From the NCBI GenBank assembly GCA_038093515.1, contig JBBPSI010000106.1:24629-88628 (forward strand): DNA of 64,000 nucleotides. Direction: 5' to 3'. The translations under genes were made by a program, and so were the position numbers. The notes beneath the pieces are model-generated. The model was not told the DNA's origin. It was given only the letters and a program-made list of their open reading frames with translations, and searched no databases. This stretch comes from Butyriboletus loyo. Its lineage: Eukaryota; Basidiomycota; Agaricomycetes; Boletales; Boletaceae. How positions within the stretch are numbered: the stretch's first letter is position 1; each line of letters begins with the position of its first letter. Positions 20,661 through 62,400 of this stretch are shown here, piece by piece.

Positions 20661-20786
20661 ATGCATCTCGCGCGACCCTTTCTCGTCATTTTTTGGCTTT
20701 GCGCACTCGCCCTCGCTGCGCCAGAAGACGCAGGGTCTAATGATCAAGACAGTTCTGATGGTCCTGTCGGTGAGGCACCGGTTTGA
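20661..20786 (+). CDS. Small secreted peptide, copy P1 (41 aa)
   Basis: Short ORF that belongs to a family repeated about eleven times in this window. It starts at the ATG in ACAGAATGCAT, a context shared by most copies. Residues 1-21 form a signal peptide (FLVIFWLCALALAAP core). The predicted mature part is short, acidic and Ser/Asp-rich (SNDQDSSDGPVGEAPV). P1 stops earlier than its relatives, which continue to a PLECLMIAL-like tail; the corresponding bases remain in the DNA downstream. Its UstYa partner is lost. The role is unknown; a ribosomal-peptide precursor or small effector are both possible. Confidence 0.5.
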   Translation: MHLARPFLVIFWLCALALAAPEDAGSNDQDSSDGPVGEAPV

Positions 20787-21082
20787 CTCGCACGTTTGAC
20801 AATCTCCTTCTGACGTGACTTGTTTGTCTTGTGGGGATCAGAATTCTGGGGCGCCTAGTGACGTAGTCAGCACTTTTGACAAACGGCTGCTGGTCATTTT
20901 GAGCGTGTTGTCGACTTGGGCCTAAGTTACTCGGAGTTAATTTATTCCCGTTAATCACAAAGCCAGCCTTTGTTCCGAGTTCATTACGGAGTGACGCCAG
21001 CAAAATCAAAGTTGGCTCTGAAGTGATGCCACGTTGTCGAGGTCGTCGTTGAACAAGTCAAGTCAGAGGGTTTCTGAGTTTA

Positions 21083-21160
21083 CGTGTCTCTCCTTGAACT
21101 TCCTCTCTCGGAGTCGTTCCAACCTTTTCCTTATCCGGGTACTTCTGCGGTAAATGAAGA
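21083..21160 (+). repeat. Promoter-only copy of the S33 upstream segment
   Basis: Contains CTTCCTCTCTCGGAGTC and a CCGG-TAC tail like the sequence upstream of the S33 gene at 19.7 kb, but no hydrolase coding sequence follows. Confidence 0.5.
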
Positions 21161-21387
21161 CGCAAAAGCGCATTAGTGACGAGTTCGCACGAAAGATCAA
21201 GTTAGTTTGCGAAGAATTTTGTTCATCGCAATGTTTCAGATCCGTCCGCATCTGCCGGAAGAGATGATGAGTCCGCAATCCGCTGTCATTCTTGTGCATC
21301 GCATTCCTATCCTTGATCTTACCGAGATCAGGCATGCTCAGGAATCTGAAGTTAGGCGATGATCTCTGACTGGATCCTGAGCGACCG

Positions 21388-21465
21388 CATCAGTGAAATG
21401 GTTATTGGTTGGAACTAACGGCTACGGTCGGTTAGCATCGGAAACCAGCAACTGTTTTACTGATG
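21388..21465. mobile_element. Short inverted-repeat element (MITE-like), 78 bp
   Basis: Begins CATCAGTGAAATGGTTATTGG and ends with the reverse complement of CATCAGTAAAACAGTTGCTG, so the ends are imperfect inverted repeats of each other (about 17 of 20). A related 99-bp copy in the opposite orientation lies at 40725-40823. No clear target duplication. Confidence 0.55.
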
Positions 21466-22049
21466 GATCTCTGGCTGATGACTCTCTGACCTGCCCAATT
21501 CTCGTCAGTTCTAATGTTTCATGAAGAGTACACTGCACGTTCGGGCCGCTGACTACCTCAGGTGTATTTTCGATCTGTCCAACCTCAAACAAGTTCGGAT
21601 TATATATGTATACCGGGGACACCTTCAAGTTCATCTCGGACGAACCATGACGTTTCAAATTTTCTCCAGCTCCCTGGCGGCATGTTTCGTAATACCACGT
21701 CAACCCGGCCCCACCGAGGAAATGGGTAAGCTTCAAACCACATTCTAATACTTATTTGGGCTGCATGTTCTCCCGTGAGCTCGCGTCAATCGGGAGTCGG
21801 CGCTTTGATGCTCTGGTAACGTTCGGCGGTCGCATCAGAGTCAGAGCACCGGCTTTCCACGTTCGCTTCAATAGTCCTCCCGAGTAGGAGTAGACCATTC
21901 CAGACTATGCGTAACGGTCCCATCATACACTTGAAGTGACCGGTAGTCGCTCGAGTCTTGACGATGTCATAGTCTAAGCGTCGAAAAAAAATACAATCCT
22001 CACTAGAAATAAGTCATATCATATCAGAGGGCCATCGTCATCGACAGGG

Positions 22050-22158
22050 CCATTGTAAATGATATGTCTCCGTCAGTACACCCTACGTGTGCTGGCGCAA
22101 CAAGAGCTAGTGCACAAGGCCACAAAAAACCAGAAAGGGCGCACGATATGCATGTCAT
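22050..22158 (-). pseudogene. Decayed small secreted peptide, copy P2
   Basis: Minus-strand ATG at 22158 begins a recognisable MHIVRPFWFF start, but a small indel in the signal peptide shifts the frame and brings a stop after 26 codons. The roughly 500-bp intergenic region is deleted, so the peptide start lies directly against the UstYa pseudogene exon 1. Confidence 0.6.
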
Positions 22159-22738
22159 TCTCAATATCTTGGAGATGCGTCAATAAATGGACCTCAGTCG
22201 CAACCAGCAGCTCGTGGGTCACTCCACATTGTACTAAGTCATTCACAGTAGGCCATTGACTCACCTTCGTCACGCAAATCCCTGAGTATAGCTCGCGGCG
22301 CCGACTACCACTACCCCATTGAGCTACCTTTCCACGTCTCCGACGGTCCCAAGATGACTTCACGAGTTTGACCATTTCCCGTTCAACGGGACTGGTTTCG
22401 TTGCTCAGATGGAGTGGGACAAGCTCGTTACGGCACCAAACGGGCCAGTCATACGCGACTCGGTCTAGACCACGGGGTCTTTGCAGTGGTATTTTCCACT
22501 GCCTGTAGTCAATCCAGAGAGCGTTGACTGCAATGATAACTACCCTGGATACGATCATCTGCATCATTGTCTCAGTCACCTGTGGCAGACGCTGCAGTGT
22601 TAGGCTGCCGACACGCTTGAACTCCGAAACTTTGTGGAGAGGGATCACGAGAATAATCGTGGAGATACGCTGGTCTGCAGGGACTGGCAACAGGTTTACA
22701 CTGCGTTGGATGAGAATTGTCAGAATTGGTTAGAGTGA
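22157..22738 (+). pseudogene. UstYa-like (DUF3328) pseudogene U1
   Basis: Matches the intact gene at 30160-30826 over most of its length: exon 1 remnant ISWRCVNKWTS, then pieces of the GADY-P-ELPFHVSD stretch, the histidine motif region and the C-terminal GDTLVCRDWQQVYTALDEN. It carries several stops and frameshifts, one TAG replacing the conserved DNA codon in the LGPDHRV stretch, and an early stop after NWLE. Not functional. Confidence 0.75.
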
Positions 22739-23192: not shown

Positions 23193-23761
23193 ATGTTCAA
23201 GCTTGCTGCTGCACTCGCACTCGTTCTCTGTATATACTTCTGCCTCGTATCCGCAGATAGCATACGATTGGCCAAAGGTAAAGGGGCGATTGTTCTGCCT
23301 CGACCCACTCTAACCATCGTCCGAACACAGACCTCTCGCTTTCGGTTCCGTTTGGGGACCCAGTAGTGATCCGTGTAGACAAGACCGCTCACTACAGTCT
23401 CGAGTCGGACGAGGGTAAAGCCGAATTCGACGCGCTCATTCCAGATGGAGATCACACGGTCGTCCTCCCCGACCCAAGGAGCGGAAAGCCCGTCACTTAT
23501 ACGGTCACACTTCTCCACCAGCTCAAGTGTCTGGGCATCATCCGTGACAATTACAACTCTCGCGAGCCGCTGTCTCAGCTCACGAAGCATTGCATGAGCT
23601 ATTTACGGCAGTCAGCTTTGTGCAATATCAACACGAGAATAGAACACTCGGTCGAGGCAACAGGAAAGGCTGAGAGAGGGTACGATATGGTTTGTCGGGA
23701 TTGGACAAAGCTGTATGATGAAGTAGAGAGGATCCACAAAGCCGACTTTGGGGCTGAATGA
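23193..23761 (+). CDS. UstYa-like (DUF3328) oxidase, diverged, 171 aa
   Basis: Member of the UstYa family, whose characterised fungal members carry out oxidative cyclisation, hydroxylation or chlorination of peptides. Two exons, 23193-23277 and 23331-23761, join in phase 1. The N-terminus is a hydrophobic signal or anchor (LAAALALVLCIYFCLVSA). The two family histidine motifs (normally HxxHC) appear as HQLKC and LTKHC, each lacking one His; the SYLRQSALC and MVCRDW segments are well kept. It differs clearly from the repeated UstYa copies in the window, so it is a separate, older paralogue. The reading frame is intact. Whether the altered motifs still bind metal is unknown. Confidence 0.8.
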
Positions 23762-24457: not shown

Positions 24458-25347
24458 ATGTCGTCCAACTCGAGTTGGGTCCTAGATGAAGACGCTCAGA
24501 GGTGCTGGATTCAAGGTGTCATCATCAGTTCTATCGCATACGGCATTACCGTCGCCCTATACTCCTTGTCCTGCCATCTGCTCGTTCGCGGGAAAAACCG
24601 TATGGAATTCAAGAAACGGTTGCTTCTGCTAATTTATATCACCGTCGCCTTCGTCCTCGGTACTCTCTTCATGATCGCACTCGCAGTATTCACCCAGATG
24701 GCGTTCATCGGCGATCATAATTATCTGGGTGGTCCAAGCGCATTTGAGAACCATATGTTCTCGATCCATGTAAACGATGCGTGCAACGCGGCGTTTGTTC
24801 TATCCAACTGGCTGTCCGACGCTCTAGTGGTCAGTTGGCATCGAATTGGACGGTCTACTGAACGACTTATCAAAAGGTCAGGTGTGGCGCTTCAAAGTCA
24901 TTTATCAGGAATGCGGGGTCCCTATCTGGATCGTGATGCTCTTCCCTTGCCTGGTGCTCGCAGGGTCGGTGGGTCAGTACCTTGAGTCATTATAAACTTG
25001 TGAGAAGGCTTGACACACGCTACAAAAATGCAGCGTTGGGGATAATGTTTCTCATTCAAGCCTCGACCGCAAATCCCTATGTCACGAACAATATCAACTT
25101 TACGCTGCCTTATCTCGGCCTGTCCCTCGCTTTAAACGTCGTCCTTACCATTTCCATCGTCCTCCGTTTGTTGATCATCAGACATCGGATCGTCTCTGTA
25201 CTGGGCCCCAAATACAGGACACAATACACGTCAGTTGTTGCGATGACCATCGAATCCGCTGCGATCTACTCTGGGTTGAGTTGGCCCCGGGGCAGTTTAC
25301 CTCTGCTGGCGCCTCGGTTACGGTGGCAAATGCTGGGAAAATGGTAA
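24458..25347 (+). pseudogene. Seven-helix membrane protein, truncated copy 1
   Basis: First of four copies of a basidiomycete seven-helix membrane protein. It has lost 15 bases near the N-terminus (residues TLFSE in the others) in frame. About 230 bases between helix 6 and the tail are missing, so helix 7 is gone and the tail is read out of frame to a stop at 25345. Splice sites for exons 1-3 match the intact copies. Probably non-functional. Confidence 0.75.
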
Positions 25348-27298: not shown

Positions 27299-28501
27299 AT
27301 GTCGTCCAACTCGAGTTGGGTCCCAGACGAAAGCGCTCAGACCCTCTTCTCTGAGAGGGCCTGGCTTCAAGGCGTCATTATCAGCTCCATTGCCTACGGG
27401 ATCACCGTCTCGCTATACTTCTTATCCTTCCATCTACTCGTGCGCGAAAAAAACCGTATGGAATTCAAGAAACGACTACCTCTGCTGATTTATATCACCA
27501 TCTCCTTCATTTTCGGTACTATCTTCATGGTCACACTTGCAGCATTCACCCAGATGGCGTTCATCGACGATCGTAATTATCCGGGCGGTCCAAATGCGTT
27601 CGAGAACAACATGTTCTCGATCCCTATAGACGACGCGGGCAACGCAACGTTTGTTCTGTCCAACTGGTTTTCTGACGCTTTAGTGGTCAGTTAGCATCGA
27701 ATTGGACGGTCAAGTCAACAATTTACCATGATGTCAGGTATGGCGCTTCAAAGTCATTTATCAAAAATGCCGAGTCCCTCTCTGGATCGTGATGCTCTTC
27801 CCTTGCTTGATGCTCACAGGGTCGGTGGGTCAGTAGAGTTCTTTTCTAAGCTTGCGAGGAGGCTTAACAGCCCGAAATACAGCCATGGGAATATTGTTCC
27901 TCATTCAAGTTTCGACCACAAATCCCTATGTCACGAACAATATCAACTATACGCTGCCTTATCTCGGCCTGTCCCTTGCCTTGAACATCATTCTCACCAT
28001 TGCTATCGTTCTCCGCTTAATGCTTTTAAGATATCGCATCGTTTCGGTGCTGGGCCCCAAATACGGGACGCAGTACACGTCAATCGCTGCGATGATCGTT
28101 GAATCTGCCGCACTCTACTCCACCGTTTCTATCGCTTTTCTCATCCTGTTCGGGATCGGAAACGCAGTTTCGCAGGTGTTCCTACAGTCCATGAACCAAA
28201 TCCAGGTTTGGCTTGCTTGGAATGCCTGTCATCTTTTTCTCATCCCTCATTACAGACAATCGCCACTCTATTAATCGTGTTCCGCGTTGCGCAGGGCAAA
28301 GGATGGACCGAGGAGACTGCTGCACGTGTGATGACAGCTCAGAGGTCGTCGCCAAACTTGGAGTTCAACAAGAGGCGGTCTACCTCAGCTGGCGCTTCCC
28401 TTACGCTAGCAAGTTCTGGGGGAACGGTAAAGAGCGATGGTAGGGAATTCCAAGGCAGTCCGCGTTCAAACAACTTTGCCATGATATCGAATCCAGCGTA
28501 G
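27299..28501 (+). CDS. Seven-helix membrane protein, copy 2 (348 aa)
   Basis: Orphan polytopic membrane protein of a type common in Agaricomycetes, with receptor-like topology but no assigned ligand. Exons 27299-27685, 27738-27828, 27883-28205, 28256-28501; all phases agree. Hydrophobic helices are visible in order: GVIISSIAYGITVSLYFLSF, LLIYITISFIFGTIFMVTL, the NATFVLSNWFSDALVV region, the IVMLFPCLMLTG region, LGLSLALNIILTIAIVL, SAALYSTVSIAFLILFG and TIATLLIVFRVA. The loop DDRNYPGGPNAFENNMFSIP is strongly conserved between copies. The Ser/Thr-rich cytosolic tail is the most variable part. Start at 27299 because the ATG and the upstream 100 bases are conserved in all copies. Confidence 0.85.
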
Positions 28502-29690: not shown

Positions 29691-30159
29691 GATAATTCTT
29701 ATCGACGTTACAGTCATTCATATGGTGCAACTATTCGACCATGTGATGGCAGTAGCGCTCATTTCACGGCAAGCCCCTCGATACGCTCTGCCTCATAATC
29801 TGGGGTCTGGGTACGTGTGACGTCCGCTGATACCATATCAAAACAAATTGAACTTTCCGTCGTCTTCAATGTTGCAGAACATTGTGGCATGCAGAAAATT
29901 AGATGCGGCTTCGTCGGAACGTGTTAACGTGATGACGGACATGCGGAATTTGAATCTGATACCCTCAGTCGAGCATACACGTTTTCCGTAGCCATGACAC
30001 GTAGCCAGTCGATGGTATCTACCTTTCCTGTTCTACGTATTCGAGATCGATTAGCTGAAAGTCGGTGCACGGTGTTGACGCCGTCTCTGGCGAACCGAAC
30101 ACGGTTTGGTACCGTAGTATGTTAACTTTGTAACAACGCGTTGGACAGTATTACCATGC
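29691..30159. other. Intergenic
   Basis: About 470 bases with no supported feature; contains the ends of the preceding pseudogene and of the UstYa-like gene on the other strand. Confidence 0.4.
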
Positions 30160-30826
30160 TCAATTCCACTCTTTTGCCCACTCTAACCAGTTCTGATAAT
30201 TATCATCCAACGCAGTATAAACCTGTTGCCAGTCCCGGCAGACCAACGTATCGCCAACGCGATCGTTCTCGAAATCCTTCTCCATAAAGTCTCCGAGCTC
30301 AAGCGTGTCCGCAGCCTGACAAAGCAGCGTTTGCCGAAGGTAGTTGAAACAATGATGGAGATGACCGTAACCGGCGTAGGTGTCATTGCGGTCATTCAAC
30401 GCCCTTTGAATTGACCATAGGCAGTGGAAATGATGCCAGAATACTAGCGTGAACACCCTATGGTCTGGACCGAGGCGTGTACGACCAGCCTCTTTGGGTG
30501 CCATGACGAGCTCGTCCCACTCCATCTGAGCAATAGGATCAGTCCCGTTGAGCAGGAAATGCACGGTCTCGTGGAGAGTCATGGCGACCGGATCGTCGGT
30601 GATGTGGAAAGGTAGCTCGAGCGGGTAATCGGCGCCTCGATAGCTGTATCTTGCAGGCTCTGAGGGATTTGCTTGACGGAGGCGCGTCAGGGATAGTCCA
30701 GTGTGAATTACTCTTCTGAAGTGACTTACGCGCTGCTGGTTGCGACTCTGAGGTCCATTTATTGAAGCATCTCCAAGTTGTGAGGAGGATATTGAGGACG
30801 GCAAGGATTTTGTAGGTGAGGTTCAT
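30160..30826 (-). CDS. UstYa-like (DUF3328) oxidase, intact, 198 aa
   Basis: The only intact member of the repeated UstYa subgroup in this window. Exons 30826-30730 and 30659-30160 join in phase 1 over a 70-nt intron (donor GTAAGT). Residues about 5-20 form a membrane anchor (YKILAVLNILLTTW). Both family motifs are canonical: HHFHC and HLHHC, followed by FNYLRQTLLC and DTLVCRDWQQVY. Characterised relatives act on ribosomal peptides in ustiloxin-type pathways. It is divergent from a small secreted peptide gene (31437) with about 610 bases between them, an arrangement repeated through the region. Substrate unknown; the neighbouring peptide is the obvious candidate but this is inference. Confidence 0.85.
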
Positions 30827-31436: not shown

Positions 31437-31610
31437 ATGAAGGACAAATCGTTACATCGGACAGACAAAACGTATTTCACGCGGCACTTGCTGCTAGTTT
31501 TTTGGTTTTGTGCACTCGCTTTCGCAGCGCCAGCAGACGTTGGGTCTTTGGACGATACTGATGTCAGTGAGAGACCGGTTCTCCACGCATATTTGACGAT
31601 CACCGTCTGA
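31437..31610 (+). CDS. Small secreted peptide, copy P3 (57 aa, changed start)
   Basis: Family peptide next to the intact UstYa-like gene. The ATG used by other copies is ACG here (ACAAAACGTATTTCAC), but an in-frame ATG 33 bases upstream keeps the ORF open, adding 11 residues before the hydrophobic core (LLLVFWFCALAFAAP). The mature part DVGSLDDTDVSERP ends with a tail related to that of other copies. Whether the longer N-terminus still acts as a signal peptide is uncertain, so this copy may be decaying. Confidence 0.4.
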   Translation: MKDKSLHRTDKTYFTRHLLLVFWFCALAFAAPADVGSLDDTDVSERPVLHAYLTITV

Positions 31611-33797
31611 CATTGCTTCTATCTTTTGTGGGAATTAGAACCACCAGGCGCCTAGTTAAGACTAGCAAGCAACTGGACTCGCCAACGTTCCAACTTTGGT
31701 TCACTTGTACTCAACGTTATTTAAATTTAAATTACAGCTGAATCTGACCGTAAAGCGTTGTGCAAACGAGCCACCTTTTTTTTTTGCCACGCCGATCAGA
31801 CTTTTGAACCTTGACCGCCCTCCGCCAGAGGACTCATACGTACGGGACACGATTCATGCATCATGTACGAAAATGCCAAATTGATGTTCAAATACAGCCA
31901 ACCTCGATAGACAAAATAGACTGACAGTCGTTCTGGTCGGCTCGGCAACTGAGGGTAAATGCAATGGAAGCAAGCCAATATGTACGTACATTGAACCTGA
32001 CTAGTCTGGGGCTGAACTCATCGAACATAGCCGGCGGCCGTGACGTGTGGAAAACATGGAATGGTCTCCACGAAACGTCAGAGCTGACGTACATTGAGGT
32101 GGGATTGCGGTGTTAACGCTCACTCTGCGACCTGTCCTGCATTTTCTTATAGTCAGGCTGAAATATCAGGCTAGTACCGCTACACGTTTTGCGTGTGCAT
32201 TTCCGATCGCATATCCGCTTGCAAGTTCCCCGCTTGAAAGTTGGCGCACACAAAGCATATTCTCAGCCACTTTCAACCACTACACACCATCCTGTCTCCC
32301 TCAAGGGCACGAGCCCATTTGCCTATAGCGTGCTCCAACACTCCATCCCAACGATACGACCAATGGTATGACGATTTGAACTTTCCAAGTATATCTCGTT
32401 CGGCTGTGCAACGGCGCGCATGCTCTCGCTTTCGATGTCTATCTCATATTGTCAAGACGTCCTTGACAACTGAACAGAACTTCCCCACGTGCGTCGACAT
32501 GAGTACGCCTTTACCTTTATTATCATATTGTCATGTACTACAAGTGCAGGCCATATTCATCGTTTCGAGCAAGCTGAACGTAACCGTGCCAGTGGACTGT
32601 GCACTGAGTCACCCCGCACCACTTTTAAAAGCGCAGGACAAACAAGTGTCCTTCCTGTTTATCGTCCGGTCTACCGTTGGTCCTATTTGGCCTTGCAAAT
32701 AGATAAGTGGCACTTACGAACGCACATACAACTCTGTTGTAGACTTTTGGTAGTGACTCGAACATCCTGTGAAGTTTGCAGGCACCCCCAAGGAGAGTTG
32801 TAACCCGGGGATGGCGACTTCGACGTTACGGAGTGGATCACGATCCATGTACTGCTTCACAGAGGCTCGAGTCGAGCGAGAATGATGATACATTTACGGT
32901 CTCACTTGGTGTTCGCGAACTGACTGGAGGTGTCAACTTAAGGAGCTGCGTACCCCCGGAACTAGGCATCCCGAGCATACGAGTCCCACGATTGGTGGAT
33001 GTTCACTGCCAACAAGTGAATTCGTTTCTCTTTGAAATTGGTGCGTGACGAGGCCATGTCATGAAATGGGAGAGTATGATCATCACTCATCTGATCGGGC
33101 TGCGATGTTGAGAGCGAGTCAAGGTGGAGGCGACGGATTTGCAAGCAACACAAGCAAGAAGAAGGAAGCACTCACGCTCGAAACGTCGTGCCGCGTCATG
33201 GCCTGAGCTTTGGAGCTCAACTGAAGCGCACACAATCGCGCTTGGGGCGTCTCGTGCACGGGTGAGGGCATGCGTAGTACTACTCACTCCCCTATGCCTA
33301 TTCTTGGCATCCAGTCCACGGCGGGTCGGTGAGCTTGACGTGCCATCAGACTCATGTCGAATGAGGCGCTGCCGCCGTGTTTTCCATGTTATCTGGCACT
33401 CACTTTGCGGCAATGGGTTTAATCTGGGTGCACGATGAGGGAACACAAACTATTGATCAGTACGAAACAAGTAATAAGTGTAGAGTATAGCTTACCTCCA
33501 GTCGAGCATGTACGAGACCGGAGGAAAGTGGAGCAAGGCAACGCATCGAGAGAAGAGTACAGTGTCCGAACAAGGATATGTATTAATAATCAATGTAAAA
33601 GTGGTTTAACGGTCTTTGGTTCGCTGTAGACAACTCCGAGTAGAACCAGAGTCGAGCATTCCAGCCCACGCCCAACATTCTATCACGCTCTGGAAGCGGG
33701 AAAGAGTCATCTGAGTCCTATTAACTAAGGCGGACTGAAAATCTAATCACTCACAAGAAGTAGAAACCATGTCATAGACTCATAGGGCGATCGTAGA
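31611..33797. other. Repeat-rich stretch without supported gene
   Basis: Contains a segment at about 32030-32260 (GACGTGTGGAAAAC, GAGGTGGGATTGC) that recurs at about 42060, 46935 and 62690. A second segment at 32935-33290 (ATACGAGTCCCACGATTG, AAACGTCGTGCCGCGTCATG) recurs at 42455-42800. Open frames in the two copies do not correspond well, so I call no gene. The last 160 bases belong to the module copy with peptide P4. Confidence 0.5.
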
Positions 33798-33926
33798 TCA
33801 TTCGAGGGAACGTGGCCCCGCGCCGATAGGGAGAGGGTTCGCTCTAATTTGGGGTACGCCTATTGGTGCAGCGAGAGCTAGTGCACAAAGCCAAAAAACG
33901 ACGAGAAAAGGCCGCGAGAAATGCAT
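33798..33926 (-). CDS. Small secreted peptide, copy P4 (42 aa)
   Basis: Starts at the conserved ATG (ACAGAATGCATTTC on the minus strand). The signal peptide is well kept (FLVVFWLCALALAAP). The mature part is unlike the other copies (IGVPQIRANPLPIGAGPRS) and is Pro/Arg-rich rather than acidic, and it ends before the usual tail. The UstYa partner is missing; only intergenic sequence remains at 34560-34830. Confidence 0.45.
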   Translation of the reverse strand: MHFSRPFLVVFWLCALALAAPIGVPQIRANPLPIGAGPRSLE

Positions 33927-35330: not shown

Positions 35331-35470
35331 TTAATAACTCTGAGTAGAGCCTAAGTCAACCATTGCAGACTACGCGCAACGTTCCGCTGCACGCCTGAAG
35401 CGGCCGCCGTCGCTCAAGCCCTCACTAAGCACCTGCTGCACCTAATCGCCCACAAAAAATAGATGTCATG

Positions 35471-35641
35471 TCAAAGGGCAATCATCAAACATTGGAGGTG
35501 AATCGGTCCCTCACCGAGACTGCTATCCTCCAAAAAAACAGAATTGGCCCCATCAGTAGATCCTATGTTCTCTGGCGCAGCGAGAGCTAGTGCGCAAAGC
35601 CAAAAAACAAAAACCATGAGAACGCCCCGCACGAAATGCAT
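35471..35641 (-). CDS. Small secreted peptide, copy P5 (56 aa)
   Basis: The longest copy with a normal ATG. Signal peptide with a small insertion (VLMVFVFWLCALALAAP). The mature part carries an extra hydrophobic patch (ANSVFLEDSSLGEGP), then the family tail with the conserved Cys (HLQCLMIAL). Two homopolymer runs in the gene leave the frame open. Partner: the UstYa pseudogene at 36430-36880. Confidence 0.5.
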   Translation of the reverse strand: MHFVRGVLMVFVFWLCALALAAPENIGSTDGANSVFLEDSSLGEGPIHLQCLMIAL

Positions 35642-36429: not shown

Positions 36430-36880
36430 AGACCTCGTCTGAGATAAACCCTCCTTACAAAATTCTTTCCCTGCTCGATCTCCTCGTTACGGTTTGGAGA
36501 CACCTCAATAAATGGACCTCAGAGTCGCAACCAGTAGCTCGTAAGCTACCCCACAGGACTGAAGCATCCACTCACCTCCATCATGCATTCCCTGAAGAGG
36601 CTGGTCGTACGCGTCTTGGTCCAGAATGGCGTTCACGTTGGTATTCCGGCATCATTTCCACTGCCTGTGGTCAATTCAGAGGGCGTTGATACCTACACTG
36701 CTACGATCATCTGCACCATTGTTTCAACTACCTTCAGCAAACGCTGCTGTGTCGGGCTGTGGACACGCCTGAACTCAGAGACTCTATGGAGTGTGATTTC
36801 GAAAATGATCGTGTTGGGGATACGCTGGTCTGCCGGGACTGGTAACATGAGAATTGCCAGTAGTCCGATAGGGTGGGCGG
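36430..36880 (+). pseudogene. UstYa-like pseudogene U2, internally deleted
   Basis: Exon 1 has ATG changed to ATA (GAGATAAACC against GAGATGAACC in the intact gene); LLVTVWRHLNKWTSESQ follows. The middle of the protein, including GADYPLELPFHITDD, is deleted. The HLHHCFNYLQQTLLC and NDRVGDTLVCRDW segments remain in scattered frames with stops. Confidence 0.75.
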
Positions 36881-37700: not shown

Positions 37701-37900
37701 CGCTTGAAAAAACCGATGAACATGACAAAAAAGTGCTTTGTTGCTTTCTGGTTTAGCTGTACATGTTTCTGAGTAGAATCCAAATTAACCATTTCAAACT
37801 AAGTCACACAATGCTTCACTGCACGTATCAAGCCCCAGTCGTCGCTGGGGTCCTAACTAGGCGCCCGCGCATCCTAATCCCCCAAGAAATACAAGCCATG

Positions 37901-38065
37901 TCAGAGAAGGATCGTTAAACATTTGAGGGGAACCAGTCCCTCACCGAACGCTGCATCAGGCTTAAAAGTATTAGTATCTGTAATACACCCTGCGCGTGCT
38001 GTCGAAGCGAGAGCTACTGCACAAAGCCAGAACACTACGAGCTTGAAGGTCGGCGTAAAGTACAT
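37901..38065 (-). CDS. Small secreted peptide, copy P6 (54 aa)
   Basis: Starts MYFTPTFKLVVFWLCAVALA; the AAP usually at the cleavage site is replaced by STARAGC. The mature part is longer and less acidic (ITDTNTFKPDAAFGEGLVP), then the tail KCLTILL. It lies in a segmental duplication shared with P9 but differs from it in the mature part. Partner: the strongly decayed UstYa copy at 38580-38832. Confidence 0.48.
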   Translation of the reverse strand: MYFTPTFKLVVFWLCAVALASTARAGCITDTNTFKPDAAFGEGLVPLKCLTILL

Positions 38066-38579: not shown

Positions 38580-38832
38580 ATTCTTTGCACCGCCTGTGGC
38601 CAGTTCAGAGGGCATTGAATGACCGCAATGATAGTCACGCAGGTTACGATCATACCTGCCACCATTGTTTTAATTACCCGAGGCAGTGCTGCTGTGCCAG
38701 GCTGTGGACACACCTGGGTCCTCTATGGAGAGGGATTTCAAAAATGATTGTGTCAGAGATGCACTGGTCTGACGAGATGTTAATGTTGTCTTGGATGAGA
38801 ATTATCAGAATTGGTCGGAGAGGGTATAGTGT
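38580..38832 (+). pseudogene. UstYa-like pseudogene U3, fragment
   Basis: Only the second half is left: HRLWPVQRALNDRNDSHAGY, CHHCFNYPRQ and remains of the DWQQVYTALDEN region with deletions and frame changes. Exon 1 and the first half are absent. Confidence 0.7.
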
Positions 38833-39719: not shown

Positions 39720-39835
39720 GCCACGTGTGGACGACAAATCCTAGTAGTTTTTTTGTCTTTGTGCGCTAGCTCTCGCTGCGCCAACGGATGGTTTTACAAT
39801 CGCCTTCTGACAGGGCCTCCATTTCTTGTGGGAAT
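39720..39835 (+). pseudogene. Small secreted peptide remnant, copy P11
   Basis: Keeps the stretch coding for part of the signal peptide (CTTTGTGCGCTAGCTCTCGC then TGCGCCAACG) and a GGTTTTACAATCGCCTTCTG tail, but lacks the start and most of the mature part. Orientation matches P1 and P3. Confidence 0.55.
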
Positions 39836-39839
39836 TAGC

Positions 39840-41440
39840 ATTCAGTACACGTCAGGACTCAAGCGACGGCCGCGGGCGTGTGGCGGAATGTCGGGGTAAA
39901 ATTGCATTGCGGGATCGCATTGCCGGAATACAATAAGTGAATCATTTTTGGGGATCTGTGACAGTCTGCGTCCTTGGAATAACGACCTTGACGAGCCTTC
40001 TAATCTTCACTGTGTACCCAACAGAAGAGCTCGAAGGTTCCCATTGCAGTGGCGTCCAAGGTTCTGGATGGCTTGGCTTGTCTGGAGCGAAGAAACTTCG
40101 AAGCACGTCACTGAAGTGAGCGGTGCGGCTACCACGACGTCAAGGTTAGCGTCAGAGATATCGCGACAGGGATGGTCGGACAGATCCGAGACTCCTTTGG
40201 CATGTCCCTGTATCTCGTGTGGTATATCCCAGTGCGTCTCTTCGCCGTGTATCCCCATCCCACACCTTCAAATTACTTCGTAGGACAGACACGTCTGTCT
40301 TCTTGGTTACAGCTGTAGGTCGGGGACGTTCCAGCCCGCCGGCCACCCATCACCTCTGTCTGTCTCGTTTCCCAGAATCAACCGCTAGATCCCTGCTTAG
40401 TGTACGCTCGTCGTGAGGACCTCGCACAATCAGAACGTGCGAGTCCTAGACTCCTACGCCCGCGTCTCGCTCGTACCCGTGCGTCCCCGACGACAATGAT
40501 AATGATTCTAAACGAATCCTCGTCCTACCGAGACCTCGCCTCACTCTGCCTCCACGTCCCCCTCTTTGTATCTTCTTTGACCACGTCGACTCCCATCGTC
40601 TCATTGTTGGAGATCATCCAGTGGATAGACTACTCACATTCGTTAAATTTCCTTATTCGGACGCCGCTCTCTTACGACGCGTTGCCTCACCGCTTTCCTC
40701 CCGTCTCGTACGTACTCGACTGGACATCAGTAAAACAGTTGCTGGTTTCCGATGCTAACCGAGTATAGCCGAGTGCTACAGACTGCTAACCGGTGGTTCC
40801 GACCAATAACCGTTTCACTGATGGAGGAGTTACTTGCCCATCTATCTGGTTCGTGTTCCCTCATACTTATCACGTCCTAGGACTACCTCATGGTTCCAAG
40901 GCACACCACCATCCCCACCCACATTCGACCTGAACTCCTCTTCCGACCACAAAGAACGGCGCAAGATTGTCAGTGAGGCTGACCAGGGGCACAGAAAACG
41001 CCATGCTCCCATGACCTTACCGAGTCACATGCAGTATGGGTATCCAAAGTGTACTTTTGGCCCCGGATTGAACGAGCGGAAGTATAGTTGTGGGTTTGAT
41101 TCAGCGGTGCGGGCATGAGATGTTGAGTCGGGTGTGTGTATGGATATGGTCGTACGTCTTTTCATCCTTTCCGTTTTTTTTCAAGTGGTGTGGAAAACCA
41201 ATCTCATACTAGCTCCCATTTCTATTTTCACCTTTGTTGTCTAGGCCATCCCCGAGCGACCGATACTCAATCTAGTTGTTACACCTGAGGGACTCATCAT
41301 CCTCACGTACTGTTGGTACGTGACTAAAGACCTTGCGAATGCTTTCACGCGCTATGTCACCAGCTAATAGGCAACCATACTCCAGTGCTTATTTCGCCCG
41401 AAAACACCAACAAACGTGGCAAAAAATGGGTTAACGCTTG
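39840..41440. other. Region without supported gene
   Basis: Several open frames of 60-120 codons overlap on both strands (39948-40283, 40400-40768) with no recognisable family or splice logic. Contains the inverted-repeat element 40725-40823 and, next to it, 40 bases related to 25465-25505. Confidence 0.4.
40725..40823. mobile_element. Short inverted-repeat element (MITE-like), 99 bp
   Basis: Starts CATCAGTAAAACAGTTGCTG and ends with the complement of CATCAGTGAAACGGTTATTGG. Related to the 78-bp element at 21388-21465 in opposite orientation; the middle differs by a 21-bp insertion or deletion. It supplies the C-terminal codons of a chance ORF there. Confidence 0.55.
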
Positions 41441-41493: not shown

Positions 41494-41697
41494 CTACGTG
41501 CAACGTTTGACCACACGCATGGTCCTAACTTTCGGAGCGATCATCAAACATTCGAGGGTGACCAATTCCTCACCGACAGGGCCATCAGACTCAGAAAAAG
41601 GAGCAATACCTCCATCGGTAGATCCTTCGTCTGCCAGCGCAGCGAGAACTACTGCACAAAGCCAAAAAGCTACCAGCAAGGAGCGCGCAAAGTGCGT
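41494..41697 (-). pseudogene. Small secreted peptide, copy P7, start lost
   Basis: The family ATG is ACG (ACAAAACGCACTTTGCGCG) with no in-frame upstream replacement seen. The frame stays open through LLVAFWLCAVVLAALADEGS and the tail TLECLMIA, and reads past the usual stop because of a change there. Module flanks 41459-41500 match the other copies (CTGAGTAGAATCCAAATCGA). Confidence 0.6.
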
Positions 41698-42800: not shown

Positions 42801-43071
42801 TGCCCACTCCCTTGACCAAGACGATCCCATCGGAACAGTCTTGGACGGTTTGAGACGGTTCATGGTGTGATTGCTTCTCAGATCTCAACATTGAGCTTTG
42901 ACATCCTGGAAGTCTCATTCTAGACCCTTATCCTGACAGTGCTATACTGCAGTCACATAACTTCAGGTATAACCCGAGTCGACCATTCCAGACCACGCCC
43001 AACATTCCACCACGTTTTGGTAGCGTCCGGCAGTCACTTGAGTTCTGGTACTAAGCGGGCTGAAAATCTAG

Positions 43072-43221
43072 TCACACATAAGAATTGGAGGCTATATCAG
43101 GCGATAGAAGAATTGGTCCCTCACCGATAGAAGCATCAGAATCTGCATCAGTAGACCCAGTAGACCCTACAAGGGCTGCACAAAGCCAAAAAGCTACGAG
43201 CAAGGGCCGCGCAAAACGCAT
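43072..43221 (-). CDS. Small secreted peptide, copy P8 (49 aa)
   Basis: Starts MRFARPLLVAFWLCAALV; the alanine-rich end of the signal peptide is shortened and followed by a small repeat GSTGSTDADSD. The tail differs from the others (GPILLSPDIASNSYV) because of a change in frame near the end. The ORF is otherwise intact. Its UstYa partner is reduced to exon 1 at 43755-43890. Confidence 0.45.
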   Translation of the reverse strand: MRFARPLLVAFWLCAALVGSTGSTDADSDASIGEGPILLSPDIASNSYV

Positions 43222-43754: not shown

Positions 43755-43890
43755 GTGGGCCCTCCCTACAGAATTGAATTTCTTGCCCTCCTCAATCTCC
43801 TCGTCACGGCTTTGAGATGGCTCAATAAATGTCAGTGGACCTCAGAGTCGCAACAAGCAGCTCGTCAGTTGCTTCACAGGATTGATTGGG
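43755..43890 (+). pseudogene. UstYa-like pseudogene U4, exon 1 only
   Basis: Resembles exon 1 of the intact gene (LLNLLVTALRWLNK...WTSESQQAARQLL) with the ATG changed and three extra bases. The second exon is missing; sequence after 43890 leads into the mitochondrial uS7 promoter. Confidence 0.65.
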
Positions 43891-45700: not shown

Positions 45701-45851
45701 CCTGGTTAGCTGTACATGTTTCTGAGTAGAATCCAAATCGACTATTTCAAGCCAAGTGCAATGCTCCACTACGCGCATCAAGCGGTCGGTCGTCGCTTGC
45801 GTCCCAACTAGGCGCCCTCGAAATCTAATCCCCCAAGAGATACAAGCCATG

Positions 45852-46010
45852 TCAGAGAACGATCGTCAAACATTTGAAGGGAACCAGTCCCTCACCGACA
45901 GACACATCAGAACTAGAAATATCCGCATTAGCAGACCGTACGTCTGCTGGCGCAGCGAGAGCTACTGCACAAAGCCAAAACACTACGAGCCAGGGCCGTG
46001 TAAAGTGCAT
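45852..46010 (-). CDS. Small secreted peptide, copy P9 (52 aa)
   Basis: A canonical copy: MHFTRPWLVVFWLCAVALAA signal peptide, P at the presumed cleavage site, mature part DVRSANADISSSDVSVGEG, tail VPFKCLTIVL with the conserved Cys. The reading frame is intact and the ATG context conserved. Its UstYa partner is a short remnant at 46494. Confidence 0.52.
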   Translation of the reverse strand: MHFTRPWLVVFWLCAVALAAPADVRSANADISSSDVSVGEGLVPFKCLTIVL

Positions 46011-46493
46011 TTCGTCTCTGCGATGATTACTATTAATTGATGATACGGTTAGGCTTTGCCGTTCGCAGGTATCGTATCGCCAGAGGATTACCCACCAATT
46101 GCGTCTGCGTTGAAAAAGAACAAGGATGGCACAAAGTAGTTGCACTGGAGCAACGAGACTCGTCGCTAGCCATTTTATCAGTCTCCGTGGTTCATTCACG
46201 TGGGAATGCATATCCCCCCAGGTAAACTTGGAGTTAGACCGGACTCATCGAAATGAAAACTCCCGAGCGGCACGAGTTCACGAAGAACACTTCTCGTACA
46301 AAGATCGGGACGCGCTTCGAAGCATCGCCCAATTCTTCAGATAGAACCCTGATTGATGTATCACTGATCACGGAATACACCACCCGAGAAGGTCAATTGG
46401 GATTAGTTCAATCTTGATTTCTCATGAGAAACCATCCGAATACATACCATGCAGCTTAGCGAGTTGTTATCGATCCGCACTGACCCCGACACC

Positions 46494-46605
46494 TACAAAA
46501 TTCTTGCTGTCCTAAATCTCGTTATCATGACTTGGATATGCATGGAACCTCAATAAATGAACCACGGAGTCGCGGCCAGCAGCTCGCAAGTCACTTGACA
46601 GTGCC
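46494..46605 (+). pseudogene. UstYa-like pseudogene U5, exon 1 remnant
   Basis: Bases code for KILAVLNLVIMTWICM-like sequence, then a stop just before the KWTSES-equivalent. The start region is deleted and exon 2 is not found. Confidence 0.6.
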
Positions 46606-46689
46606 GATTTATTCATTATGAGCCATCGACTCACCTCCATTACGCATTCCTGGGCAATGTAATGTGTCTGAGGCAAAATTGTTGCCATG

Positions 46690-53946: not shown

Positions 53947-55160
53947 ATGGCGTCCAACTCGAGCTGGGTCCCGAACGAAGACGCTCAGACCCTCTTCTCC
54001 GAGAGATGCTGGCTTCAAGGTGTCATCATCAGCTCCATCGCATACGGCATTACCGTCGTCCTATACGCCCTGTCCTTCCATCTGCTCGTTCGCGAAAAAG
54101 GCCATATCGAATTTAAAAAACGGTTACCTCTGCTGATTTACATCACCGTCGCCTTCATCCTCGGTACTATCTTCATGATCTCACTCGCAGCATTCACCCA
54201 GATGGCGTTTATCGACGATCGTAATTATCCGGGCGGTCCAAACGCGTTCGAAAACAATATGTTCTCGATCCCTATAGACGACGCGGGCAACGCAGCGTTT
54301 GTTTTGTCCAACTGGTTGTGCGATGCCTTGGTGGTCAGTAAGATCGGATTGGATGGTCAACTTGACAACTCATCAGAACGTTAGGTATGGCGTTTCAAAG
54401 TCATCTATCAGGAGTGTCAGCTCCCTATCTGGGTTGTGATGCTCTTCCCTTGCCTGATGCTCGCAGGATCAGTTGGTCAGTACATTTAACCTCGCTACGA
54501 GCTTGTGAGACGGTCTAACAGATTTACGAACCCACAGCTTTGGGGATCATGTTCCTCATTCAAGTTTCGACCACGAATCCCTATGTCACGAACAATGTCA
54601 ACTTTACGCTGCCTTATCTCGGTCTATCCCTCGCTTTGAACATCATCCTTACCATCGCCATCGTTATCCGTTTGTTGACCTTGCGATATCATACTGTCTC
54701 TGTGCTGGGCTCAAAATACGGGACACAATACACCTCAGTTGCTGCGATGACCATCGAATCCGCCGCACTCTACTCTGCCGTTTCTATCGCTTTTCTCGTC
54801 CTGTTCGGGGTCGAAAACGCCGTTTCGCAGGTGTTCTTACAGTCCATGAACCAGATCCAGGTTTGGCTTGTTCGGACATGCTTATTGCCTTTCTCTCACC
54901 TCCAACCACAGATAATCGCCTCGCTGCTAATCGTGTTCCGCCTCGCGCAGGGTAAAGGATGGACTAAGGAGACTGCTACACGTGTGTTTACAACTCGAAA
55001 CCCGGAGTCAGTAGAGTCAAGCAGGATGCGGTTTGCCTCACCTGGCGCTTCGGGTACACTGGCCGATTCTAGTGAAATGGTAAAGACCGTTCGCGGGGGG
55101 TCCCAAGACGATCTGCCTTCAAACAACTATATCATGATGAGGGATGTAGGTATCCGATGA
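53947..55160 (+). CDS. Seven-helix membrane protein, copy 3 (349 aa)
   Basis: Exons 53947-54333, 54385-54475, 54538-54860, 54912-55160, the same lengths as copy 4 (387, 91, 323, 249). All seven hydrophobic stretches are present, as is the strictly conserved loop DDRNYPGGPNAFENNMFSIP. The last intron is 51 nt and a multiple of three, so read-through would keep the frame. The tail (EMVKTVRGGSQDDLPSNNY) is variable and Ser-rich. Function unknown; topology is receptor-like but it lacks sequence features of STE3, STE2 or Git3-type receptors. Confidence 0.85.
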
Positions 55161-58368: not shown

Positions 58369-59300
58369 ATGTTTTCCACACGCTCCAACCACTATGTCCC
58401 TCTACTGGACGAGAGTCGACTCGGTCATGATGATTGCGAGTCCTCCAAAGACTCCGTCCTACCTACCCCCTCCTCTAAGGAGAAGCAGCGCACGTCCCAA
58501 GCGATTCCATGGACCCTTGTTGTGGTCATCGCATGCACGCTCCTCAACGTCGCCCTCACTGTTCTCCCGACGGTGCTCACCCAGAGTAAACAGGTGCCTC
58601 AGACTGACACACTCATCACAAGGCAGAACATCCACCACCTCCGTCGACCCAACCAGTACATCGGGTTTGACGAGATACCGCGGCCCTCTCCCCCTGTTAG
58701 TCGCCAACTGACCACGTACCCAATCTTACTCAGCTTGGTGGATGCTGTATCCCCGGACATCGTGTTCGACGATGATGTCGCTGCACGCATGGTTCATAGC
58801 GGCACCATCACGCCCGACGATAGGAGAGTGCGCATTACGCCCACCGTGAGTCCCATCCGGATCTTCAGTCTCACAGTCGGGCCCATTTCTGACACGCAAC
58901 AAACGGAAAGATGTCAACGATCATCCAGTTCCGTGCAATCGACTGGGGAATGGAAAATTGCGAGCTCCACATAGATTTGCCAGAGTCCTTTGGTCAGGAG
59001 GGCCATTCTGGTTCTCTCGCATTGTATCGCGTCAATGCCACCATTCCGTTGGACAGCGCCTCCCTCTCTTACAACACCCGTCCTCCTCGCATCGCCAAAG
59101 TTGGAAGTATTCAACTTGGGAACGGTGTTGTGACGTGGCACAGAAAGTTTAGCTGTGCGAGGGAAGAGGTGCTTTCATTCGAGCTCAGCTGCCTTCCATT
59201 GTCGGAATCCGGCGGTGATTCCAATTGCTTTGTGGAGTGGGTACAAATCAAGAACGCACTGCCTGGTGAGCATCCAGACTGGGTTATCGATTTGGGATGA
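58369..59300 (+). CDS. Type II membrane protein with conserved extracellular domain, 288 aa
   Basis: A family I recognise from many Agaricomycetes without known function. Exons 58369-58845 and 58911-59300 join in phase 0. Cytosolic start of about 45 residues, one membrane helix (PWTLVVVIACTLLNVALTV), then an extracellular part with LRRPNQYIGFDEI, the DDRRVRITPTVSTI segment, FRAIDWGMENCELHI and a C-terminal beta-rich domain with paired cysteines (FSCAREEV, LSCLPLSES, SNCFVEW). Anchored facing outside the cell. Intact; a decayed copy lies at 28869-29690 in the same position next to a seven-helix gene. Confidence 0.82.
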
Positions 59301-59725: not shown

Positions 59726-59865
59726 ATACAGTCGATATGCTCATAATGCATAGGCTCATAATGCATAAACCCTACACTTAGGGTGACCCAAACCTTGACT
59801 AAACCTAGTCTCGCTTAATGGTCATTAGGAACCGTTGTTATGCATTATGAGCATATCGACTGTAT
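59726..59865. mobile_element. MITE, 140 bp, perfect 26-bp inverted repeats
   Basis: Ends 59726-59751 and 59840-59865 are perfect reverse complements (ATACAGTCGATATGCTCATA and six more bases). Flanked on both sides by ATATGAT, a likely 7-bp target duplication. A direct duplication of GCTCATAATGCATA lies inside the left end. No coding capacity. The strong palindrome would form a long hairpin. Confidence 0.75.
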
Positions 59866-61226
59866 ATATGATGTACTGTCCTGGATCAGATTCCGTGGCT
59901 ACATGTGAACAACGTCAATACAGAACCATGCTGCCCTCACCATGGATTTTCATGCCTTGCTTCCAATTTACCAATTGCCCGACATACGAACGCCTGGGAT
60001 TCCTGATACCAGCCCTGAATGGGTCAGCATCGTCGACAAGAAACAAGTACGTACCTCCAACACCCGGAGCAGGATCAACGAAACGAGGAAATACCCAGGC
60101 CCGACAACAAGTTATCAGACGAGGTGCTCTCTTCTTCGGACGTGGCGGTGGACAAGGTCGAGGAAACAAAAGTTTTTACGAGTACGAACTCTGTTGCCCT
60201 TTGCGATTGCTGGCGACAGTAGTCCCCAATGTGACAATGTCTCTGACCCCAACCCCGAATGTGCGGGGCAGGATCAAGGGGACAAGGGAGCAGCCGAGCC
60301 CGGGAACCAGTTACTATAGGACACCTCTTCCTCAGGCTCCTGCAACCCACACAAACTTCGAGAACGAAGGAACGGTTATCACGAGCAGGGAATTTATTTC
60401 GTTACAGTTTGCAAGGCAGGGATCCAGGCAACAGATGTCACTATTCGCCTTGGCCGAATCTCTGCCGGCTTTCACAGTGGTGCATGATGACGGTTGTGAA
60501 TGAAGAACCGAAAATAAGCGTTCGTCAGTGAATAACGATGTCGTGGGATGGGGTGGGCTGATTCCGCTGTGAGGCTCTTTCCTTTCATTCGCACCAATCC
60601 TAACAGAGTTCGCAGTCCGTCTTGGAATTCCACCCCATGAGGAACAACTACGAAGGCTGACAGTTACGGTGCAACTACTAGATTGCAGTGCACAAAATGC
60701 TCGTGAGTAGAATGGTGTTTAAGGTGAGCTTTTGAGTATTCATAAGCCTGGGAGTCTATCTTATCCATCTTGTGGAACGGCGTTGTCAAACCAGTCCTGA
60801 ATGCCCTGGCTCAGTTCTCCGTACGTCAGCTTAGGCTCAAGACGACGAAGAGCAGACATACCTTCGGCCACTTGATAACCTCGCGGAGCATCACCACAGT
60901 ACTCTCGAGTTCGCCCAAGACACTGAATGCTTCCGCCCACCATAACAACACCGTGGCACGGAACCTTTCTAGCACACTCAACAGCGCCTCGTTGGAGATC
61001 CCATCATTCGGGAGCTAGGCAATCATACTTTAATCCTTGTTTCGCTTCAAAACATGTCATCGAATATATTGTCGTCAGCTGTAAATAACTCTGCGTATAA
61101 CCCGAGTCAATCCTTCCAAACTGCGCGCATCGTTCCACCACACTCTTGGAGTGGCCAGTAGTCAACTCGAGTCGTACTAACTAGGCGCCTTCAGAAACTA
61201 ATCACGCACAAGGGATAGAGGCCATG
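59866..61226. other. Region without firm gene
   Basis: A 222-codon plus-strand ORF (59835-60503) begins inside the MITE, which argues against a real gene start; it has no recognised domain. On 60761-61018 both strands are open. From 61080 on, the sequence is the 3' flank of the peptide module. Confidence 0.4.
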
Positions 61227-61367
61227 TCAGAGGGCAATCATCAGATATTCGAGGGGAACTGGTCCCTCACTGATAGGGTCATCATCAGTAGACCTTACGT
61301 CTACTGGCGCAGCGAGAACTAATGCACAAAGCGAAAGGAATACGAGCAAAGGCCACGTGAAATGCAT
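61227..61367 (-). CDS. Small secreted peptide, copy P10 (46 aa)
   Basis: Canonical copy: ATG in ACAAAATGCATTTC context, signal peptide MHFTWPLLVFLSLCALVLAA (the usual FW is LS), P at the presumed cleavage site, mature part VDVRSTDDDPISEGP and tail LEYLMIAL in which the conserved Cys is Tyr. The frame is intact. The partner UstYa copy at 62090-62400 has lost its first exon and stop. Confidence 0.5.
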   Translation of the reverse strand: MHFTWPLLVFLSLCALVLAAPVDVRSTDDDPISEGPVPLEYLMIAL

Positions 61368-61739
61368 TTTGTCTGTGCGATGTAAGGCTGGTTAGCGTTT
61401 GTCGTTCGCGTGTATCGTTGGAGGATTACCCACCAACTTAGTCGCTTTAAAAGAGCAAGGAAGGAACCAAGTAGCTGCACTGGGGTAGGGGAGAGTCGCC
61501 GCTGGCCATTTTATGAGGATCTGCGTGAGAGGCGTGTGTCACCTTGGGAAGGCACTAGACTCTGATGTAAGTAGACGGGATATAAGAGTGTTAACCCCCA
61601 AGCGCGAGTTCACGGGGAGAACTTCCCGCACAAATATTGGATTGTGCTCTGAAAGCTTGAAACTCACCATGGAATCAGTATAATAGGACCCGACTCCATT
61701 GTTAAGGAGTATACCAGACGGTCCGGGGAACTAAAGGTT

Positions 61740-62040
61740 AAAACATCACGTGGCGAGCTAGTATACTGCATCGATAAGGAATCGAACAATCCCTGATGAG
61801 AACCAAGTTAGCTATATCATGTCATGCGGCCCAGCGAGTCGTTGTCGATCCGCGGAAAGACGTCGACCTTGCTGCTGTACCCACTAGTGCACCTGCCGAA
61901 GCGGCGAGTTCCTTTCGATGGTGCAGTTGGGACCTGTTTCCCAACGGACCACCTCCGGTTTTCAGGGGATCATTCCCATGGGGAAAGGAAGTTGTTCCAC
62001 GAATGAGTTAACAATGACGGATGGCTCAACCTGCCAGGAA
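61740..62040 (+). repeat. Module intergenic remnant
   Basis: Matches the intergenic region upstream of the intact UstYa-like gene in patches (CAGCGAGTCGTTGTCGATCC, then GGGAAAGGAAGTTGTTCCAC, then AACAATGACG). The UstYa exon 1 is missing after it. Confidence 0.5.
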
Positions 62041-62089
62041 GCCTGAGAGTTCCGTTATGTACTGGGACTAGTATAGGCATCGTACTGTG

Positions 62090-62400
62090 GCATTCTGACG
62101 TCATTTCCACTGTCTGTGGTCTATCCAGAAGGCGCCGAATGACCGCAACGATACCTACGATCACCTGCACTATTGTTTCAACTACCTGTGGCGAACGCTG
62201 CTGTGTCAAGCTGCGGATACGCTTGCACTCGGAGACTTCATGGAGGGGAATTTCGAAAATGATCGTGTTGGAGACGCGCTGGTCTGGTTTTCCAAGATTG
62301 GCAACAGGTTTACGCCGCGTTGGATGAGATGAGAATTATCAGAATTGGTTTATGTAGAGTGGGCAGAAGAGTGGAATCGAAGGTTGGAAAGAGCGTAGTG
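62090..62400 (+). pseudogene. UstYa-like pseudogene U6, second exon
   Basis: A long, fairly well kept piece: WHSDVISTVCGLSR-type reading with FWHHFHCLWSIQ-equivalent bases, NDRNDTYDHLHYCFNYLWR, then LCQAADTLALGDFMEGNFEN and DRVGDALV. HLHHC has become HLHYC, an insertion follows GDALV, and the terminal TGA is CGA. The youngest-looking of the decayed copies. Confidence 0.72.

What the first reader, a model, noticed from the sequence alone, without database searches (positions are those of the whole stretch)
20661..62400. Repeated divergent pair: small secreted peptide plus UstYa-like oxidase
About eleven copies of a tiny signal-peptide-bearing ORF occur here, most with a UstYa-like (DUF3328) gene or its remains on the opposite strand across a shared intergenic region. 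Characterised UstYa proteins modify ribosomal peptides. The layout therefore suggests an uncharacterised basidiomycete ribosomal-peptide system, amplified locally. Seen: the ORFs, the motifs HHFHC and HLHHC, the divergent order. Inference: that the peptide is the substrate. Against: flanking noncoding DNA is duplicated too, and the peptides lack Kex2-type core repeats.
Basis: partly seen in the sequence, partly recalled or inferred. Interest (0 to 1): 0.87.

Follow-up and report, generated by a model that had tools for sequence, protein, structure and literature searches.

The report
Peptide, oxidase and receptor-like gene module
A bolete-type mushroom genome carries an array of tiny secreted-peptide genes, often back to back with a peptide-modifying oxidase gene or its remains and near genes for a membrane protein whose predicted shape resembles a yeast peptide-pheromone receptor, which suggests a form of peptide signalling in mushrooms that can now be tested.

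The parts
30660..30826 (-). UstYa oxidase gene, exon 1 (30826-30730) and predicted intron (30729-30660)
   Evidence: spliced protein of 198 aa has the same length as the Boletus homologues P0001 and P0002
30160..30659 (-). UstYa exon 2 with HHFHC and HLHHC motifs; the one intact copy of this subfamily found
   Evidence: Pfam PF11807, 40 bits against cut-off 25
20661..20858 (+). peptide gene: exon 1 20661-20769, intron 20770-20841, exon 2 20842-20858; predicted C-terminus EFWGA
31470..31655 (+). peptide gene beside the intact UstYa; ACG at the conserved start (upstream in-frame ATG at 31437); exon 1 to 31566, intron 31567-31638, exon 2 31639-31655; C-terminus KPPGA
35425..35641 (-). peptide gene: exon 1 35641-35515, intron 35514-35442, exon 2 35441-35425; C-terminus GAAGA
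37857..38065 (-). peptide gene: exon 1 38065-37945, intron 37944-37874, exon 2 37873-37857; C-terminus GCAGA
43051..43221 (-). peptide gene: exon 1 43221-43125, intron 43124-43068, exon 2 43067-43051; C-terminus DFQPA
45808..46010 (-). peptide gene: exon 1 46010-45896, intron 45895-45825, exon 2 45824-45808; C-terminus DFEGA
61181..61367 (-). peptide gene: exon 1 61367-61271, intron 61270-61198, exon 2 61197-61181; C-terminus ISEGA
33717..33926 (-). peptide copy with GC in place of the donor GT and a shifted stop; probably defective
41520..41697 (-). peptide copy, ACG at the start position, acceptor and exon 2 deleted
21998..22155 (-). degraded peptide copy
39739..39842 (+). remnant peptide copy
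22167..22737 (+). broken UstYa copy
36444..36847 (+). broken UstYa copy
38584..38824 (+). UstYa remnant
43767..43887 (+). UstYa exon-1 remnant
46490..46608 (+). UstYa exon-1 remnant with a stop
62072..62377 (+). broken UstYa copy
27299..28492 (+). 7TM gene, exons open
53947..55160 (+). 7TM gene, exons open; spliced model 349 aa
56729..57934 (+). 7TM gene, exons open
24458..25281 (+). 7TM copy, truncated (no match to about the last 107 of 349 residues)
58369..59300 (+). membrane-anchored protein with weak But2 domain match; second copy with a stop at about 28896-29638
   Evidence: (23.4 bits, below the cut-off of 24.2)
23193..23761 (+). second, distant UstYa gene (intron not resolved), about 0.7 kb before the 7TM copy at 24458

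Best explanation
The locus is a duplicated peptide-signalling-type module. A short precursor enters the secretory pathway by its signal peptide; the mature part is an acidic stretch of roughly 15-30 residues ending in a variable tripeptide plus [G/P/C]-Ala. A UstYa-type membrane oxidase encoded back to back oxidises the peptide in the ER or Golgi (one intact enzyme could serve all copies in trans). The secreted peptide is perceived by the neighbouring seven-helix protein, whose predicted fold resembles Ste2 (class D GPCR). Shown by sequence: gene structures (splicing predicted), linkage, decay of UstYa, constraint on the 7TM, variability of the mature peptide, fold similarity of a homologue's model. 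Inferred: expression, secretion, oxidation, ligand-receptor pairing, G-protein coupling.
Against: No expression data; splicing is predicted. Foldseek alone gave no match at E <= 0.001, with Ste2 at rank 19; no sequence match to STE2 or to a solved GPCR. 7TM relatives also lie on contigs without a UstYa match, so the 7TM may have another role. The variability of exon 2 is not unique: the first 8-9 nt after its stop are 0.40-0.41 identical ungapped, though mostly 0.43-0.78 once gaps are allowed. In the youngest pair the mature region is raised at synonymous as well as nonsynonymous sites (pS 0.47, pN 0.40), which points to exchange of the segment or misalignment rather than plain positive selection. 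One UstYa is intact and its own peptide partner lacks the conserved ATG. No peptide homologue was found at the C102 UstYa locus, and none could be looked for beside UstYa in named species.
Confidence: 0.4

Rival explanations
1. A RiPP (dikaritin-like) metabolite cluster: the peptide is a precursor with a short C-terminal core oxidised by UstYa; the 7TM is a regulator, exporter or self-protection protein.
For: UstYa neighbour and secretory signal; conserved leader with variable C-terminal part; UstYa proteins of ascomycetes act on ribosomal peptides (PMC9233826 and PMC12048977, passages); Pleurotus UstYa-like genes are called 'probably involved in dikaritin production' in PMC8893723 (passage).
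Against: No dibasic Kex2-type sites or repeats in the 9 spliced precursors (by inspection); 4 of 9 variable tripeptides hold an aromatic residue; UstYa is broken at C53 and C105, where the 7TM and one peptide copy each (the C105 one with GTG at the start) remain open.
Confidence: 0.25
2. Small secreted effector or antimicrobial peptide family that diversifies locally; UstYa and 7TM are carried along by segmental duplication.
For: Signal peptide plus variable mature part; large shared segments are duplicated, e.g. about 1 kb at 83.6%.
Against: UstYa-7TM linkage recurs in other orders; 7TM copies are under strong purifying selection.
Confidence: 0.15
3. Neutral or decaying array: peptide ORFs are no longer, or never were, functional, and the duplications are passive.
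For: 5 of 14 copies broken and two more lack ATG at the conserved place; 8 UstYa copies broken or fragments; mature region pN/pS about 1.08.
Against: Phase and splice sites kept in 9 of 13 alignable copies despite length changes; signal-peptide part pN/pS 0.64; divergence of the mature part above that of non-coding flanks in the one pair tested; three database relatives not from this window, P0042, P0045 and P0046, keep the signal peptide and a pattern consistent with the same donor position.
Confidence: 0.15
4. A transposable unit carrying the pair.
For: Flanking non-coding DNA is duplicated too.
Against: No long terminal inverted repeats on the one unit examined, 29700-32200; 14 copies found on 3 of 420 contigs, a lower bound; matching pieces mostly 65-84% alike. 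Target-site duplications were not looked for.
Confidence: 0.03

Closest known systems
UstYa (DUF3328, PF11807) oxidases of dikaritin clusters
   Same: Pfam match above cut-off, two HxxHC motifs, N-terminal hydrophobic stretch, gene next to a secreted-peptide gene
   Different: basidiomycete subfamily with HHFHC/HLHHC, neighbour of a 7TM gene; peptide without Kex2 repeats
Ste2 alpha-factor receptor (class D GPCR)
   Same: best structural alignment of the predicted 7TM model; near genes for a peptide that should enter the secretory pathway
   Different: no sequence match to STE2; STE2 is described as confined to Ascomycota (PMC12842992 and PMC13308352, passages); G-protein coupling untested
Basidiomycete pheromone/STE3 mating locus
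   Same: peptide genes near 7TM genes, multi-copy, variable peptides
   Different: no STE3 match here, peptide has a signal peptide and no CaaX end, STE3 matches lie on other contigs (C6, C308)
DUF6534 seven-helix proteins proposed as new Agaricomycotina GPCRs (PMC12842992, passages)
   Same: uncharacterised Agaricomycete 7TM group
   Different: the present 7TM has no Pfam match over cut-off; linkage to UstYa and peptide is not mentioned in the passages seen
KEX2-processed repeat proteins (KEPs) of fungi (PMC6339444, passages; PMC9769878, abstract)
   Same: secreted peptides; cognate GPCRs were speculated on in PMC6339444
   Different: no repeats and no KR sites here

Membership tests
UstYa family (PF11807) | profile match over curated cut-off | tested here: met
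   40 bits against 25
UstYa family (PF11807) | two HxxHC motifs | tested here: met
   HHFHC and HLHHC at 30421-30435 and 30349-30363; H, H and C of both motifs invariant in 30 aligned homologues
UstYa family (PF11807) | oxidises a peptide | not testable with these tools
   no assay
Dikaritin / ust-RiPS precursor | signal peptide | tested here: met
   crude hydrophobic-segment rule picks 6 of the 11 window copies and the stretch is conserved; no SignalP available
Dikaritin / ust-RiPS precursor | repeated cores flanked by Kex2 sites | tested here: not met
   no dibasic sites or repeats in the 9 spliced sequences (by inspection)
Dikaritin / ust-RiPS precursor | UstYa gene next to the precursor gene | tested here: met
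   at most loci the neighbour is broken
Class D GPCR (Ste2) | STE2 sequence profile | tested here: not met
   spliced 7TM has no PF02116 match in a scan listing E up to 10 (filters drop most above 0.1); genome has no STE2 match over cut-off
Class D GPCR (Ste2) | seven-helix fold aligning best with Ste2 | tested here: met
Class D GPCR (Ste2) | couples to a G protein, binds a peptide | not testable with these tools
   no assay
Basidiomycete P/R mating locus | STE3 receptor | tested here: not met
   no STE3 match listed on C106, C53 or C105; STE3 matches on C6 and C308; none in the 7TM
Basidiomycete P/R mating locus | CaaX C-terminus of the peptide | tested here: not met
   spliced ends EFWGA, KPPGA, GAAGA, GCAGA, DFQPA, DFEGA, ISEGA, GSYCA, GSDCA
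Transposon | terminal inverted repeats | tested here: not met
   one unit examined, 29700-32200: one 12-nt imperfect pair (one arm inside UstYa) and one palindrome
Transposon | target-site duplications | not tested
   ends of the unit are not defined

The most novel reading that the evidence does not exclude
Mushroom-forming fungi possess a second, non-STE3 peptide-receptor system: variable secreted peptides, oxidised by a dedicated UstYa enzyme, act on a Ste2-fold GPCR family, with ligand, enzyme and receptor encoded side by side and the ligand diversified by local duplication. It would bring alpha-factor-like signalling, described as confined to ascomycetes, to Agaricomycetes and give UstYa a role in signalling.
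Probability: 0.3. Interest if true: 0.92.

Novelty: new variant of a known kind. Interest (0 to 1): 0.72.

Why it matters
Most fungal GPCRs are orphans (PMC13308352, abstract as listed and passage), I saw no characterised peptide substrate of a basidiomycete UstYa in the listings and passages, and cognate GPCRs of basidiomycete secreted peptides were only speculated on in PMC6339444 (passage). This locus proposes concrete ligand sequences, a concrete modifying enzyme and a concrete 7TM for one system, and the UstYa-7TM pair recurs in Boletales, Russulales, Polyporales and Agaricales, so it can be tested in other, possibly cultivable, species.

Tried and rejected
Rejected: the unspliced C-terminal tail as coding (pN/pS 1.10, third codon position most conserved); but the donor-to-branch distance is the same in 8 of 9 copies, which is unexplained, and an intron-retained form is not excluded. 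Rejected: transposon and mating-type locus. Not claimed: positive selection by dN > dS, because synonymous sites are raised as well. Led nowhere: UstYa structure prediction (mean pLDDT 61); PDB searches by sequence (none; one match, pannexin-1 at E 0.79, taken as chance; none); search for peptide copies near distant 7TM paralogues on C20, C32, C27 and at C102 with an nhmmer profile (none at E <= 2; weak hits at 3.7-9.3 taken as chance); signal-peptide ORF scan of C102 (none by a crude rule). Literature: eight searches. I saw listings with the start of abstracts, and for the large result sets only the top 12-20 rows; none of those rows linked UstYa with a 7TM gene. PMC6339444 holds both 'UstYa' and 'GPCR', but its passages do not link the genes. 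Passages only were seen of PMC8893723, PMC12048977, PMC9233826, PMC6339444, PMC12842992 and PMC13308352; PMC9769878 gave no hit for my terms. No paper was read whole, and the library lacks most subscription papers, so novelty is not proven.

Limits: relatives in named species could be compared as proteins only; 'same contig' rests on equal contig length and near locus tags. The 15 other named species in the UstYa list had no 7TM row in the second list, which proves nothing either way. The Phlebopus and Tylopilus UstYa entries are 121- and 119-aa pieces. The donor letters printed are misplaced by a slip in my script; I used only its start-codon, TATA and acceptor columns.
Full report
What was claimed and what is there. 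The window is C106:24629-88628 of a 30.3-Mb, 420-contig genome; the nearest named UstYa and 7TM relatives are from boletes (Boletus coccyginus, Imleria badia), so the organism is probably a bolete. The small signal-peptide ORF occurs 11 times in the window and 3 more times in the genome: C53:131465+, C53:132452- (with stops) and C105:76081+. Beside 7 of the 11 window copies, and on C53 and C105, a UstYa gene or remnant is recognisable, and there the two genes point away from each other.

The peptide gene is spliced (prediction). Splicing removes 57-73 nt in phase 1 and exposes an exon 2 of 14 nt plus TAG in 9 of 13 alignable copies. Exon-1 length varies from 97 to 139 nt but is always 1 mod 3 in these nine. 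The four copies that do not fit are 22153 and C53b (exon 1 damaged), 41697 (exon 2 deleted) and 33926 (GC in place of GT, shifted stop); the fourteenth, 39739, is a remnant. If the tail were coding, third codon positions should vary most; they vary least (column identity 0.60, 0.64, 0.76 for positions 1-3 in 8 copies), and pN/pS is 1.10, against 0.64 for the signal peptide and 1.08 for the rest of exon 1. Of the five database proteins found with the spliced profile, P0043 and P0044 are the window's own; P0042, P0045 and P0046 are not, and keep the signal peptide and a residue pattern consistent with the same donor position. Upstream lie a TATA-like box (9 of 13 copies) and, directly before the start codon, an acceptor-like CACAG in most copies, so a 5'-UTR intron is possible. 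Seven copies have ATG and all splice signals (six in the window, one on C53); 31470 has ACG and C105 GTG at that place.

What varies. The first 8 nt of exon 2 are 36% identical among the 9 copies, the next 9 nt 83%, and intron 8-mers 54-77% in 8 copies. Against a special status of exon 2: the first 8-9 nt after its stop are 40-41% identical without gaps; with gaps allowed the 3' region is mostly 43-78%, one end window 29%. In the youngest pair, 38065 and 46010, the mature exon-1 part differs at 21 of 55 sites, intron plus flanks at 125 of 997 (Fisher p 3e-6). Because synonymous sites are raised too (pS 0.47, pN 0.40; 16 codons, alignment uncertain), I read this as local replacement or variability of the mature part, not as proof of positive selection.

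UstYa. The gene 30160-30826 has two exons and gives 198 aa, the same length as the two Boletus homologues (84% and 80% identity), and matches PF11807. The other 8 copies of this subfamily found, six in the window and one each on C53 and C105, are broken or fragments. Two further, distant UstYa genes lie on C102 and one at 23193-23761.

The missed partner. Genes at 27299, 53947 and 56729 and a truncated one at 24458 encode a protein (349 aa for the 53947 gene) without Pfam match over cut-off. The six copies at 79-100% identity in the genome are these four plus one each at C105:74167 and C53:136010, next to the other peptide copies; the next paralogue is 41%. Five copies are open through at least residue 335 or so, and 10 pairs in two exon blocks give dN/dS 0.10-0.32. 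So at C53 and C105 the UstYa is broken while 7TM and one peptide copy each (that on C105 with GTG) remain open. A distant 7TM relative lies about 0.5 kb from one of the C102 UstYa genes (E 1e-11), and the distant UstYa at 23193 is followed by the 24458 copy. Each contig with a UstYa match (C102, C106, C53, C105) thus has at least one UstYa within about 2 kb of a 7TM relative, though C106, C53 and C105 share one origin. The reverse does not hold: 7TM relatives also lie on C20, C27, C32, C54, C65, C89 and C208, where no UstYa match was listed.

Across species. The UstYa search returned 41 proteins, 25 with an NCBI name from 23 species; the 7TM search returned 93. Locus tags are consecutive in Grifola (A0H81_12741/12740) and Roridomyces (838606/838605), and close in Tylopilus (001282/001278), Gloeopeniophorella (975246/975244) and Phlebopus (1898746/1898759). 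Orders: Boletales, Russulales, Polyporales, Agaricales (Boletus, Tylopilus and Suillus from general knowledge). The UstYa-7TM pair is therefore old and not a product of the local array.

Reading. A peptide that should enter the secretory pathway, a peptide oxidase and a receptor-like 7TM kept together by descent, with the peptide end variable and the 7TM constrained, fit a ligand-receptor module best. [quoted passage not shown] here the arrangement is similar but neither partner belongs to that system. The RiPP reading stays open because UstYa is a marker of such clusters, and the neutral reading because nothing is known of expression.

Noticed in passing
G000 C102:36853-42840 (L019): Two further UstYa genes with a distant 7TM relative about 0.5 kb from one of them and a serine beta-lactamase-like gene between (that name recalled from the sequence, not searched).
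   Followed up: partly
G000 C20:87889-103550: Cluster of at least five distant 7TM paralogues (33-39% identity); no UstYa match and no peptide copy found in the stretch fetched.
   Followed up: partly
58369-59300 and about 28896-29638: Protein with weak But2 match, duplicated near the 7TM genes; a fragment also at C53:134711-134824.
   Followed up: partly
44070-44819 and 49335-50081: Housekeeping-type genes (ribosomal protein S7 family; 2-oxoacid dehydrogenase acyltransferase, by Pfam) lie inside the array.
   Followed up: no
intron of the peptide genes, e.g. 45895-45825: Donor-to-branch distance is the same (45 nt to the end of the motif) in 8 of 9 copies, rigid for an intron.
   Followed up: partly
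G000 C6:202039-214805 and C308:5119-6130: STE3 pheromone-receptor matches, several in tandem on C6, presumably the B mating-type region; on other contigs than this locus.
   Followed up: no
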